A stretch of 64,000 bases of DNA from Actinomycetospora chibensis (GTDB lineage: Bacteria; Actinomycetota; Actinomycetes; Mycobacteriales; Pseudonocardiaceae). Below, in pieces: positions 24,410-31,839 of the stretch. A program made the position numbers and the translations under genes. The stretch lies in the NCBI RefSeq assembly GCF_028737215.1, contig NZ_JAQZAM010000001.1, positions 411,218 through 475,217 on the forward strand, written 5' to 3'. Positions within the stretch are counted from its first letter, which is position 1; each line of letters opens with the position of its first letter. The notes under the pieces were generated by a model, which had not been told where the DNA came from, ran no database searches, and was given only the letters and a program-made list of their open reading frames with translations.

Positions 24410-24442
24410 TGAGTGCAAGCAAGGACGCAGGGCTTGCACTCA
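24410..24442. terminator. Hairpin at the end of the microcompartment operon
   Basis: TGAGTGCAAGC (24410-24420) and GCTTGCACTCA (24432-24442) pair perfectly around an 11-nt loop. The right arm contains the stop codon of the last operon gene, and the convergent NTF2-like gene ends 28 bp to the left, so it probably terminates both. The left arm with the preceding CGT repeats, inverted, the end of the 23839-23865 element. Confidence 0.6.
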
Positions 24443-25123
24443 GCCCAGGAGAGCGGTGATGTGCCCGAGCACGACGGGCCACGTCGGGTGGGTCGGGTCG
24501 ACGAGGGTGAAGTGGTCGCCCGGGACCTCCACGAACACCGCGTCGTCGCCGGCCGCGCGGGCGGCCGCGACGTAGCGGCGGCTGATCTCGATCGGCACGC
24601 GGTCGTCGTCGGGGGCGTGCACGGCGCGCACGGGTACGCCGAGCGGCAGGTGCGCCGACGGGTCGGCCTCGGCGTAGCGCTCGGGCACCTCGTCGGGCAT
24701 CCCGCCCACGAGGTCGGGCACGGCCGTGCCGCCGACCTCGTCGCGCGCGGCGTCGGCCAGCGTCAGCACCCCCGCCAGCGACACCACGCCCGCCACCGGG
24801 ACCCGGGACGCCACCCACGCCGCCAGGTGCCCGCCCGCGGAGTGGCCGACGACGACGCACGGCGCCTCGACAGGGCCCACCGCCGCCGCGACGTCGTCCA
24901 GCGTCGCGGGCCACGGCGCCTGCCCGACGCGCCGGTACTCGACGTTCCATACCGTGTGCCCGCGGGCGTGCAGGTCCGCCGCGACCGGCGCGATGTGGTC
25001 CAGCCCGACCCGCGCCCGCCAGAAGCCGCCGTGCAGCAGCACCACGGTCCCGGTACCCGAGCCCCGGCTGACCTCGACGAACTGCGACGGGTCGTCCCCG
25101 TAGGCCACACGCTCAGCGGACAC
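24440..25123 (-). CDS. Alpha/beta hydrolase, arylformamidase/esterase-like
   Basis: 227 residues. HGG oxyanion motif (VVLLHGGFWRARVG), nucleophile Ser in VVGHSAGGHLAAW, acid Asp in VRAVHAPDDDRVPI and His in VPGDHFTLVDP complete a Ser-Asp-His triad. The HGGFW plus YRRVG layout recalls kynurenine formamidase-like hydrolases, so deacylation of an N-acyl or ester aromatic is plausible. The GTG start lies inside the 3' end of the RidA gene (11-bp overlap). Last gene of the microcompartment operon, ended by a hairpin. Confidence 0.82.
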   Translation of the reverse strand: MSAERVAYGDDPSQFVEVSRGSGTGTVVLLHGGFWRARVGLDHIAPVAADLHARGHTVWNVEYRRVGQAPWPATLDDVAAAVGPVEAPCVVVGHSAGGHLAAWVASRVPVAGVVSLAGVLTLADAARDEVGGTAVPDLVGGMPDEVPERYAEADPSAHLPLGVPVRAVHAPDDDRVPIEISRRYVAAARAAGDDAVFVEVPGDHFTLVDPTHPTWPVVLGHITALLG

Positions 25124-25559
25124 GGACCATCGCGTCCAGCTCGACCGCGAACCCCCGCGGTAGCGCCCGCACGCCGATCGCGGTGCGCGCGTGCTCCCCG
25201 CGCGCCCCGAACACCTCGGCGAGCAGGTCGGACGCCCCGTCGACGACCCCCGGCTGGTCGGTGAAGTCCTCGGTGCACGTGACGTAGCCGCGCAGGACGA
25301 GGACCTGGGCGACACGGTCGAGCGAGCCCAGCGCGTCGCGCGCCTGGGCCAACAGGTTCAGCGCGCACCCCCGGGCCGCGGCGTAGCCCTCGGCGACCCC
25401 GAGGTCCGCGCCGAGGCGCCCGACGTGACCGTCGGCGCCCTGACCCGCGAGGTGCAGCGTGTCCCCGGCCATCGTCCAGCCGCGGTAGCGCCCCGCGGGG
25501 CGGCGCAGGGGCGGCAGGGCCAGCCCCAGCTCGCCGAGTCGTTCCTCCGGAGTGCTCAC
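25113..25559 (-). CDS. RidA/YjgF-family protein, possible 2-aminomuconate deaminase
   Basis: 148 residues of the Rid fold: GDTLHLAGQGADG, GCALNLLAQARDALGSLDRV, VLRGYVTCTEDF, and the closing ARTAIGVRALPRGFAVELDA with the Arg that binds the imine or carboxylate in active RidA proteins. RidA hydrolyses enamines/imines; in known 2-aminophenol pathways 2-aminomuconate deaminase (AmnD) is, as I recall, a member. Its place in an operon with a LigB-type dioxygenase supports such a role. GTG start overlaps the HAD stop by 4 bp. Confidence 0.85.
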   Translation of the reverse strand: MSTPEERLGELGLALPPLRRPAGRYRGWTMAGDTLHLAGQGADGHVGRLGADLGVAEGYAAARGCALNLLAQARDALGSLDRVAQVLVLRGYVTCTEDFTDQPGVVDGASDLLAEVFGARGEHARTAIGVRALPRGFAVELDAMVRVR

Positions 25560-30001: not shown

Positions 30002-30010
30002 CAGTTCTCC

Positions 30011-30862
30011 CTAGTCCGAGTCGGATCCCCACCACACGACCGCCGCTCCCGTGCCCCACACCGGGCCGTAGGCCAGGACCTCGCCCGGGCCGTCGACCAC
30101 CCCGGCACCGTCGAGGAACGCGAACGCGCGGAACTGGCTGTCGGCCTGCGCCGCGGCGGCGTACTGCGGGCTCATGGCGAGGACCTCGTCGCGGTCACCG
30201 GCCCGAATGGCGTCGAGGACCTTGCGGTTCCAGCGGTCGTGGGCGTCGGAGACGCGGTCCTCGGCCGGGGTGATCCAGCGGCCCGTGAGCCCGGAGGACA
30301 GCCCGCTCACGGCGACGACGCCGAGCGTCCGGCCCAGGTCCCGCGCCGCCCGCACCCCGGCCGCCGCGACCGCGGCCATCGCCGAGGGCTCGGCGTAGAG
30401 GTTGCACGAGACCAGCGCGTACTCGAAGGGTCGAGCTCCGCTGCGCTCCGTCTCCCGGCGGCCGTGTCCGTGCGGGTCCAGCAGCTTCGTCGCGACGATC
30501 GTGCCGGTGTCGACGGGGAAGCCCTCGTAGAGCGTGCGACGGGCCTGCATGCCGGCGGCGTCGATCTCGTCGGCCCAGCGGTGGGCGAGGTCGGTGTCGA
30601 TCGCGAGATCGTGGTCGAGGTGCCCGTAGTCGTAGCGGTACCAGTTCTCGTCGGTCCGCCGGCCGCGCAGCCGGGCGTCGCACTGCACCTGGTGCCCGAG
30701 CACGGTGAACCACTGCGTCGAGAGCAGCAGCACGGTGTCGACGCCGGCGGCGCGCAGGCGGTCGCCGACCGTCCGGGTGGCCGTCGCCAGCTCGGCCCAG
30801 CTCGGGGCGGGGTCGCCGGCCAGCAGGTGGGGCATGGCGGGGACGAGGGCGGCCGGCGTCAC
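30011..30862 (-). CDS. LigB-type extradiol dioxygenase, degenerate (non-catalytic) subunit
   Basis: About 283 residues with the LigB fold, aligned along its length with the upstream partner. All three class III iron ligands seen in the partner are lost: APHPPH becomes PAMPH, HAPHW becomes LSTQW, and the Glu of AVVEW becomes Trp (AVVWW). In 2-aminophenol 1,6-dioxygenase the AmnA chain is likewise a metal-free partner of AmnB, so a structural or regulatory subunit of a heteromer is inferred. GTG 30862 overlaps the partner stop by 4 bp; a GTG 9 nt upstream is also possible. Confidence 0.8.
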   Translation of the reverse strand: MTPAALVPAMPHLLAGDPAPSWAELATATRTVGDRLRAAGVDTVLLLSTQWFTVLGHQVQCDARLRGRRTDENWYRYDYGHLDHDLAIDTDLAHRWADEIDAAGMQARRTLYEGFPVDTGTIVATKLLDPHGHGRRETERSGARPFEYALVSCNLYAEPSAMAAVAAAGVRAARDLGRTLGVVAVSGLSSGLTGRWITPAEDRVSDAHDRWNRKVLDAIRAGDRDEVLAMSPQYAAAAQADSQFRAFAFLDGAGVVDGPGEVLAYGPVWGTGAAVVWWGSDSD

Positions 30863-31839
30863 GGGACCCACTCCACGACGGCGTTGCCGGTCGCGATCAC
30901 CGTGCCGTAGGCCAGGACGTCGCCAGCGACGTCGGGCCAGCCCATCGCGGCGAGCAGCCAGGTGAGGCTGCCGGCCTTGGTCTCCGACGCCGTCGCCTCG
31001 ATGTGCTTCGGGACGGCGTCCTTGAGCCGTGACGTCGGGCCCTCGCGGATCGTCTGCAGGAGCTCCATGTCGCCCGCGTACTGCGCATGGTTGAACGGTC
31101 GCTCCGCGCTCATGTCCTCGGGGAGCTCCGGCTCGGTGTCCCAGTGCAGGTGCGACAGCGAGTTCGACCCCAGCAGCACCGCGCGTCGGCCGGTGCGCTC
31201 GATCGCGCGGCGGGTCGCGACGCCCAGCGTCTCCATCTCGGCGAGCGAGGCGTCGGAGTAGTAGTACGGGTTGTTGTTGGCCGAGAGCGACACGACCGGC
31301 AGGTCCCAGTCGGGGTTCGCCAGGTGCAGCGCGCCGATCGTCGCGTAGTCGACGCGGACGCCGTCCTCACGCAACGCGCTGGTCACGAGGCCCGCGCGCT
31401 CGCCCTCCTCGACGATCGCCTCGGCGAGGTCGACGTCGGTGCGGAAGTCGTAGTGGTACCGGAACAGGTGCGGGAAGATCGGCTCGACGGAGATCCCGCG
31501 CGGGTTCGGCACGCAGTTGACGTGGTGGCCGACCATCGTGATCCAGTGCGGCGCGTGCACCACGAGCACGTCGGGGCGGTGGGCGCGCAGCCGTCGGCGC
31601 AGCTCCTCGTAGCCCCAGCGCAGCACCTCCCAGCCGCCCGTCGAGCGGGGCTCGTTCTGCGGCGGGTTCTCCGCGTACACGAGGTGCGGCGGGTGGGGCG
31701 CGAGGTAGCCCGCGACGATGCCGGCCTTCTGCTCGCCCGGCCTGGGCGCCGGCGCCGGAGCCGGAGCGGCAGGCGTCCCCGCCGCGCGCCGCGCACCGGA
31801 CCGGCTGCTGCCGGCCGGGACCTGGAAGACGCGGGCCAT
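30859..31839 (-). CDS. LigB-type (class III) extradiol ring-cleavage dioxygenase, catalytic subunit
   Basis: 326 residues. Non-haem Fe(II) ligands are visible: His in LAPHPPHLVY (residue 49), His98 in VHAPHWITMVGHH and Glu323 in GNAVVEWVP; SNSLSHLHW carries further conserved His residues. Predicted to open a catechol or 2-aminophenol ring. The first ~35 residues (MARVFQVPAGSSRSGARRAA, then an APAPAPAP linker) precede the fold and look like an encapsulation tag. First gene of the microcompartment operon. TAGCGT ends 8 nt before the ATG, so the transcript is probably leaderless. Confidence 0.85.
   Translation of the reverse strand: MARVFQVPAGSSRSGARRAAGTPAAPAPAPAPRPGEQKAGIVAGYLAPHPPHLVYAENPPQNEPRSTGGWEVLRWGYEELRRRLRAHRPDVLVVHAPHWITMVGHHVNCVPNPRGISVEPIFPHLFRYHYDFRTDVDLAEAIVEEGERAGLVTSALREDGVRVDYATIGALHLANPDWDLPVVSLSANNNPYYYSDASLAEMETLGVATRRAIERTGRRAVLLGSNSLSHLHWDTEPELPEDMSAERPFNHAQYAGDMELLQTIREGPTSRLKDAVPKHIEATASETKAGSLTWLLAAMGWPDVAGDVLAYGTVIATGNAVVEWVP

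What the first reader, a model, noticed from the sequence alone, without database searches (positions are those of the whole stretch)
24440..31839. Microcompartment operon combining shell proteins, a LigB ring-cleavage enzyme and a phosphotransfer dikinase
Ten leftward genes with 4-13 bp overlaps or gaps of 2-9 bp encode LigB catalytic and degenerate subunits, two BMC-H, one BMC-P, the dikinase ATP-grasp and His subunits, a HAD phosphatase, RidA and an alpha/beta hydrolase. Most characterised microcompartments handle aldehydes from ethanolamine, diols or glycyl-radical reactions. Ring cleavage by a class III extradiol dioxygenase with a PEP-synthase-like dikinase would be a different chemistry. 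I recall a bioinformatic class of aromatic-degradation BMC loci but know of no biochemical characterisation. LigB plus RidA points to a 2-aminophenol-like pathway; the dikinase points to a phenol.
Basis: partly seen in the sequence, partly recalled or inferred. Interest (0 to 1): 0.95.

Follow-up and report, generated by a model that had tools for sequence, protein, structure and literature searches.

The report
Phosphorylating microcompartment for aromatic ring cleavage
In a bacterium close to Actinomycetospora callitridis, the genes for a known kind of protein-shelled compartment, thought to break aromatic rings, lie in one tight gene run with a predicted two-part kinase and a predicted phosphatase that likely phosphorylate and then release a phenol-like nutrient, which would answer the open question of how such compartments are fed.

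Summary
The ten genes are real and tightly packed. The new part is the predicted two-component aryl dikinase with a HAD phosphatase. The main text of the 2023 paper never mentions a kinase and names only HyuB as a possible upper-pathway enzyme. In two genome samples, ARO-type kinase (68% identity or more) and ARO shell marker occur in exactly the same genomes: 14 of 297 and 5 of 396, 18 distinct, on one contig in 16. Both kinase subunits form ARO-only clades. Micromonospora loci, the published models, lack it within 10 kb. Of 30 ARO loci, 25 carry exactly one of two RidA-family deaminases and none both; four combine the kinase with the canonical 2-aminomuconate deaminase, so the substrate is more likely aminophenol-type than plain phenol. 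In one relative the whole 8.4-kb block, with its IclR gene, is absent between conserved flanks. What is phosphorylated is untested, and how this genome removes the semialdehyde is unclear. Verdict: new variant of a known organelle.

The parts
24440..25123 (-). alpha/beta hydrolase with an HGGFW motif; role unknown (amide hydrolase or semialdehyde hydrolase guessed)
   Evidence: BD-FAE PF20434 E 9e-13; closest solved chain a carboxylesterase; present in the Actinomycetospora loci with that flank and in L028/L209, L204, L207
25113..25559 (-). RidA-family protein (PF14588), predicted enamine/imine deaminase in place of AmnD
   Evidence: arginine column shared with AmnD; exclusive with AmnD over 30 ARO loci
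25556..26266 (-). HAD-IA family phosphatase with an Arg-rich N-terminal extension; the GTG at 26266 overlaps the kinase stop by 4 bp (start not proven)
   Evidence: TIGR01509 above cut-off; D42, T128, K162, D186, D187 invariant in 20 rows; first motif is DxG, not DxD
26263..28086 (-). dikinase, substrate-binding and swivel (phosphohistidine) subunit, H563
   Evidence: NF006153 757.6 bits, cut-off 578; SDVGGIMSH motif; model pLDDT 90.3, best solved matches rifampin phosphotransferase
28076..29149 (-). dikinase, ATP-grasp subunit
   Evidence: PPDK_N PF01326 E 8.8e-83; best solved match 9goj_A
29146..29391 (-). BMC-P pentamer shell protein
   Evidence: PF03319
29388..29708 (-). BMC-H shell protein with a PKPH motif (fits ARO H_cerulean)
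   Evidence: PF00936; motif read in the sequence
29711..30001 (-). BMC-H shell protein without PKPH (fits ARO H_lipstickred); used as the ARO shell marker
   Evidence: PF00936
30011..30862 (-). LigB-like non-catalytic (alpha) subunit of the dioxygenase
   Evidence: PF02900 28.9 bits; catalytic columns replaced
30859..31839 (-). LigB catalytic (beta) subunit with a conserved N-terminal extension MARVFQVPAGSS
   Evidence: 7txy_B E 2.3e-163; alignment A1
31918..32793 (+). divergent IclR regulator; start may be 31948
   Evidence: IclR_C and HTH_IclR; inside the block missing from G151 but for its last 41 bp
32813..33721 (+). acylating acetaldehyde dehydrogenase; neighbouring island, not part of the block
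   Evidence: PF09290; still present in G151, which lacks the block
33718..34770 (+). 4-hydroxy-2-oxovalerate aldolase; neighbouring island (name given by reading its sequence and neighbours, not by a family search)
   Evidence: sequence; present in G151

Best explanation
This is a kinase-bearing variant of the ARO bacterial microcompartment, in which one run of ten tightly packed genes encodes the shell, a two-subunit ring-cleavage dioxygenase homologue, a predicted two-component aryl dikinase and a predicted HAD phosphatase, and the dikinase likely turns a phenolic, probably aminophenol-type, nutrient into an aryl phosphate that the phosphatase would release for ring cleavage, probably inside the shell. 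Steps that I commit to: (1) the ATP-grasp and swivel subunits would pass a phosphoryl group from ATP through H563 to the phenol hydroxyl (inferred from HpeHI-type relatives); (2) the aryl phosphate would stay in the cell and be protected until HAD hydrolyses it (inferred); (3) the LigB pair would cleave 2-aminophenol or catechol to a muconic semialdehyde (shown in vitro for the M. rosaria homologue, not here); (4) RidA would remove ammonia (inferred from its exclusivity with AmnD); (5) since the ARO aldehyde dehydrogenase is missing here, the alpha/beta hydrolase or an unlinked dehydrogenase would take the semialdehyde on (weakest step); (6) the hydratases, aldolase and acetaldehyde dehydrogenase of the neighbouring island would yield pyruvate and acetyl-CoA (inferred). 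Shown directly: gene content, conserved linkage, ARO-only kinase clades, intact catalytic motifs, and one relative that lacks the block as a unit.
For: Kinase at 68% identity or more and ARO shell marker in the same 14 of 297 family genomes, 13 on one contig within 2 kb, and in the same 5 of 396 phylum genomes, 4 on one contig; the window genome is in both. 15 of 28 ARO loci carry the kinase and 0 of 52 LigB loci without a shell do. ARO kinase rows form one clade in both subunit trees, 100/100 and 100/99. Phenolic-kinase swivel motif S-x-x-G-G-x-x-x-H with Met two before His is kept (motif from PMC12167813). The top six solved matches of the model are rifampin phosphotransferase. HAD catalytic columns are invariant. 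Deaminases: 13 RidA, 12 AmnD, 0 both, 5 neither in 30 ARO loci; 4 kinase loci with AmnD. The block is absent as a unit in G151. LigB beta is close to a dioxygenase assayed on 2-aminophenol (PMC10470539).
Against: No activity was measured. Eleven of 28 ARO loci have no kinase within 10 kb, so ARO function does not need it; those genomes were not searched beyond the flank. Known aryl kinases feed a carboxylase or P450, and none is in this operon. The ARO-type aldehyde dehydrogenase is missing from the locus and, at E 1e-110, from 8 of 9 Actinomycetospora ARO genomes. A tautomerase at 34777-35190 could mean catechol, although it stays in genomes without the block. L022 has the kinase but neither deaminase in a 21-kb stretch. 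L011 and L204 have the kinase genes in another order. The place of HAD and kinase relative to the shell is unknown.
Confidence: 0.6

Rival explanations
1. Phosphorylation serves a cytosolic modifying enzyme, as in the Cre (P450) and Hpe (carboxylase) pathways: the aryl phosphate is first altered outside the shell, for example by the Rieske oxygenase encoded about 21 kb away, then dephosphorylated and handed to LigB.
For: A cytosolic set of Rieske oxygenase, dikinase, phosphatases and C23O exists in L158 and lies near ARO in the window, in L204 and on the same contig in G543. Characterised kinases of this family work with such enzymes (PMC9618137 passages; PMC12167813).
Against: The Rieske gene is in all 18 Actinomycetospora genomes sampled, 9 of them without ARO, and is missing from 5 of the 18 kinase-bearing ARO genomes (G057, G147, G176, G181, G613). 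No other oxygenase recurs in the ARO block.
Confidence: 0.22
2. The variant degrades a plain phenol by way of catechol, not an aminophenol.
For: PMC10470539 defines a catechol subtype by the tautomerase; a tautomerase lies at 34777-35190; HpeHI acts on phenols.
Against: A RidA-family deaminase is in the operon, and the two deaminase kinds exclude each other over 30 loci; the tautomerase stays in genomes without the block.
Confidence: 0.2
3. The kinase pair is a detoxifying or antibiotic-inactivating phosphotransferase that happens to sit in the operon.
For: The best solved fold matches are rifampin phosphotransferase.
Against: Separate subunits and the PRK08296 family as in aromatic kinases; overlaps of 4 and 11 bp with its neighbours; strict co-occurrence with the shell marker in two samples.
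Confidence: 0.05

Closest known systems
ARO microcompartment (PMC8217296; PMC10470539, Micromonospora rosaria)
   Same: One BMC-P and two kinds of BMC-H, LigB pair with an N-terminal extension on beta, IclR gene; LigB beta 72% identical to the M. rosaria locus L020
   Different: Carries the two-component dikinase and HAD and the PF14588 RidA instead of AmnD; lacks the ARO aldehyde dehydrogenase and HyuAB
Two-component aromatic dikinases HpeHI, CreHI, PpsAB (PMC12167813, PMC9618137)
   Same: Split ATP-grasp and swivel/substrate subunits, phosphohistidine motif, rifampin-phosphotransferase-like fold, a phosphatase nearby
   Different: Own clade, 43-50% identical to carboxylase-, P450-, Rieske- and amidohydrolase-linked relatives; in a shell operon; no carboxylase or P450 in the operon
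2-Aminophenol meta-cleavage (amn) pathway of Proteobacteria (as described in PMC10470539)
   Same: LigB pair and deaminase logic
   Different: No shell and no dikinase in the 52 LigB loci without a shell that were examined, several of them cut short

Membership tests
[quoted passage not shown]
   PKPH in 29388-29708 read in the sequence; feature from PMC10470539
ARO microcompartment | Two PF02900 subunits of the ARO dioxygenase type | tested here: met
   within the ARO clade of LigB
ARO microcompartment | N-terminal extension on the beta subunit | tested here: met
   peptide pattern found on LigB in 27 of 30 ARO loci
ARO microcompartment | IclR-type regulator beside the locus | tested here: met
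   31918-32793
ARO microcompartment | Semialdehyde dehydrogenase in the locus (reported as co-occurring in all ARO loci; types are assigned by shell proteins, so I treat it as a companion, not as definition) | tested here: not met
   best own-genome relatives 46% and 43%
ARO microcompartment | Polyhedral bodies or purified shells | not testable with these tools
   needs electron microscopy
Two-component aromatic dikinase | Separate ATP-grasp and swivel/substrate subunits | tested here: met
Two-component aromatic dikinase | T/SxxGGxxxH with Met two before the His | tested here: met
   SDVGGIMSH; feature from PMC12167813
Two-component aromatic dikinase | Rifampin-phosphotransferase-like fold over most of the length | tested here: met
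   5fbu E 6.7e-18, TMq 0.62
Two-component aromatic dikinase | Shares a clade with named HpeH, CreH or PpsA | tested here: inconclusive
Two-component aromatic dikinase | ATP-dependent phosphorylation of a phenol | not testable with these tools
   needs an assay

The most novel reading that the evidence does not exclude
A phosphate airlock for a bacterial organelle: the dikinase masks a toxic, membrane-leaky aminophenol as an aryl phosphate in the cytosol, the charged phosphate passes the shell pore, and an encapsulated HAD phosphatase unmasks it in the lumen, so that the free phenol and the semialdehyde exist only inside the compartment.
Probability: 0.25. Interest if true: 0.92.

Novelty: new variant of a known kind. 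Interest (0 to 1): 0.72.

Why it matters
The 2023 study left the upstream substrate and the inducer of ARO organelles unknown; its model species did not grow on 2-aminophenol, and HyuB was the only upper-pathway candidate named. A kinase and phosphatase that travel with the shell genes in 18 of 18 sampled kinase-bearing genomes give a second candidate that can be assayed at once, and suggest Pseudonocardiaceae strains as further models. If the airlock reading holds, it would be a new way to load an organelle.

Tried and rejected
Rieske oxygenase as a fixed partner of the ARO kinase: rejected, its presence does not follow the ARO block. C-terminal helix of the ATP-grasp subunit as an ARO targeting peptide: rejected, relatives without a shell have a similar tail. 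Histidine phosphatase 21765-22514 as part of the block: rejected, it stays in G151, where the block is missing. HAD N-terminal extension as a targeting peptide: left open. With the farthest start within 75 codons (an upper bound), the core begins at residue 33-72 in 18 of 19 ARO proteins (one not located) and at 5-20 in four of seven shell-less relatives, with two at 35 and 54 and one not located; the predicted helix 20-33 has low confidence. Alpha/beta hydrolase as a C-C hydrolase that replaces the dehydrogenase: only a guess; its best family and solved matches are esterases. L003 was labelled kinase-bearing in the LigB tree although its contig ends before the kinase; L024 was left as unknown there, and its genome (G613) does have the kinase on another contig. 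The LigB scan of viral contigs found nothing. Named HpeH, CreH and PpsA sequences could not be obtained. Gain against loss of the block was not polarised.
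Full report
Observation. The ten leftward genes exist as described, with overlaps or short gaps at all nine junctions. The own genome has two PF00936 places, both here. The nearest relative by LigB (97%) and kinase (99%) is Actinomycetospora callitridis, L010.

What it is. 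The LigB beta subunit matches the solved ARO dioxygenase (7txy_B, E 2.3e-163). Shell composition, LigB pair, N-terminal extension and IclR gene fit the ARO microcompartment. Of PMC8217296 I saw passages. Of PMC10470539 I saw the abstract, the first three of eight text parts (introduction and results), the whole discussion, and term searches; methods, figures and supplements were not seen. That paper reports kinetics and a structure, says that the upstream substrate is unknown, and names HyuB as the only possible upper-pathway candidate in the locus. Its main text holds none of the words dikinase, kinase, phosphatase or phosphoenolpyruvate; the genes may still be drawn in its figures. Searches for microcompartment with extradiol dioxygenase ('bacterial microcompartment', 0 papers), phenylphosphate (2), 2-aminophenol (4) and dikinase plus aromatic (5) listed no title about a kinase in this organelle; I saw only the listings of these, and the library lacks most subscription papers.

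The kinase is tied to the organelle. A LigB profile matched 512 stretches, of which the best 80 loci were kept. Twenty-eight of the 80 carry ARO shell genes. Of those 28, 15 also carry the kinase, 11 do not within the flank read (8 Micromonosporaceae, one of them on a shorter contig, and one each of Amycolatopsis, Streptomyces and Nocardioides), and 2 are cut off. None of the 52 loci without a shell carries it, though several are short. In 297 Pseudonocardiaceae genomes the shell marker occurs at 72% identity or more in 14 (two more hits at 44%), and the kinase at 68% or more in the same 14, 13 on one contig within 2 kb; the next kinase is 50% identical, in a genome without the marker. In 396 genomes across the phylum both occur in the same 5, on one contig in 4; the next kinase is 49% identical. 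The window genome is in both samples, so 18 distinct genomes, 16 with both genes on one contig. Hypergeometric odds are 3e-24 and 1e-11, or 7e-7 by genus, but these ignore common ancestry.

Phylogeny. Sixteen ARO kinase rows form one clade for the His subunit (100/100) and for the ATP-grasp subunit (100/99); the sister group differs between the trees and is unresolved. Other clades are linked to a biotin-dependent carboxylase (Hpe-like), a P450 (Cre-like), an isochorismatase-like protein, or a Rieske and C23O set; these names rest on neighbouring genes read by eye. In the LigB tree kinase-bearing loci lie in both main ARO branches, so the module may be old in ARO and lost in the published models; transfer is not excluded.

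Catalysis. The swivel motif is intact. The model of the His subunit (pLDDT 90.3) has rifampin phosphotransferase as its top six solved matches, as reported for HpeH (PMC12167813, parts 1-3 of 6 read). Forty-two residues are kept in at least 11 of 12 ARO rows and found in at most 1 of 19 others, which suggests a pocket of its own; I could not place them against a ligand.

Which substrate. Across 30 ARO loci, 13 have the PF14588 RidA, 12 the canonical AmnD, none both, and 5 neither, of which 4 are cut and L022 is not. RidA keeps the arginine column of its family; that arginine is needed for imine hydrolysis (PMC4433059, passages). Four kinase loci have AmnD. This favours an amino compound. A related dikinase pair acts on aniline (PMC7500099, abstract). 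The ARO aldehyde dehydrogenase is not in this locus and, at E 1e-110, not in 8 of 9 Actinomycetospora ARO genomes, against the published statement that it co-occurs in all ARO loci. How the semialdehyde is removed here is the weakest link.

A modular block. In G151, an Actinomycetospora without the organelle, window bases 24380-32752 (8,373 bp) are replaced by 48 bp while both flanks align. The block is the ten genes plus nearly all of IclR. Acetaldehyde dehydrogenase, aldolase and tautomerase belong to the neighbouring island. Three other genomes without the marker (G042, G075, G219) keep that island, but not the left flank in the stretches read. Nine of 18 Actinomycetospora in the sample have the marker.

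Targeting. The LigB beta N-terminal pattern was found on LigB in 27 of 30 ARO loci; the short pattern alone is not specific (6 other matches in ARO loci, 14 in 60 control loci). Two ARO loci without the kinase carry a longer likeness of this peptide on a metallo-beta-lactamase-fold enzyme, scoring above all 23,546 background N-termini; a third, on an M24 enzyme, is weaker (30 background N-termini score as high). This supports the peptide as an encapsulation signal. As a metallo-beta-lactamase-type protein is needed in Fusarium for the first step from the maize compound benzoxazolinone to 2-aminophenol (PMC4726666, passages), plant benzoxazolinones are a sensible precursor to test in those lineages.

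Verdict. A kinase-bearing variant of a known organelle type, with an untested but sharp biochemical prediction.

Noticed in passing
window 43391-46374 (+), 53091-54440 (+), 60164-63125 (+): A second dikinase pair (His subunit 43391-45223, ATP-grasp about 45247-46374), a Rieske oxygenase, two C23O-type ring-cleavage enzymes and a histidine phosphatase form a cytosolic-looking aromatic module like that of L158; the Rieske gene is in all 18 Actinomycetospora genomes sampled.
   Followed up: partly
L026:6411-7613 (-), L027:17313-18566 (+): Metallo-beta-lactamase-fold enzymes in ARO loci of Amycolatopsis and Streptomyces start with the LigB beta N-terminal peptide, so are probably cargo.
   Followed up: partly
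L031:3719-5140 (+): An M24/creatinase-fold enzyme in the Nocardioides ARO locus starts with a similar but weaker N-terminal peptide.
   Followed up: partly
L204 (G324:C534:3001-22000): The Rieske, dikinase and C23O module lies directly beside an ARO operon, and the ARO ATP-grasp gene is split off from its His subunit by several kb.
   Followed up: no
L105, L106 (G258:C324:4641-4874, G200:C62:74277-74510): Two Actinomycetospora genomes without the ARO marker hold a BMC-H only 44% identical to it, so likely another microcompartment type.
   Followed up: no
window 59339-60046 (-): A 235-residue protein with no Pfam match recurs beside C23O genes in L158, L170 and L204.
   Followed up: no
L157, L159, L160, L177, L178: A dikinase clade next to an isochorismatase-like protein, pathway unknown; sister to the ARO clade in the His-subunit tree but not in the ATP-grasp tree.
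   Followed up: no
L013-L020: Micromonospora-type ARO loci carry HyuA and HyuB hydantoinase-family genes and, upstream, a TPP enzyme and an adenylosuccinate-lyase-like enzyme (families checked on L020 only).
   Followed up: no
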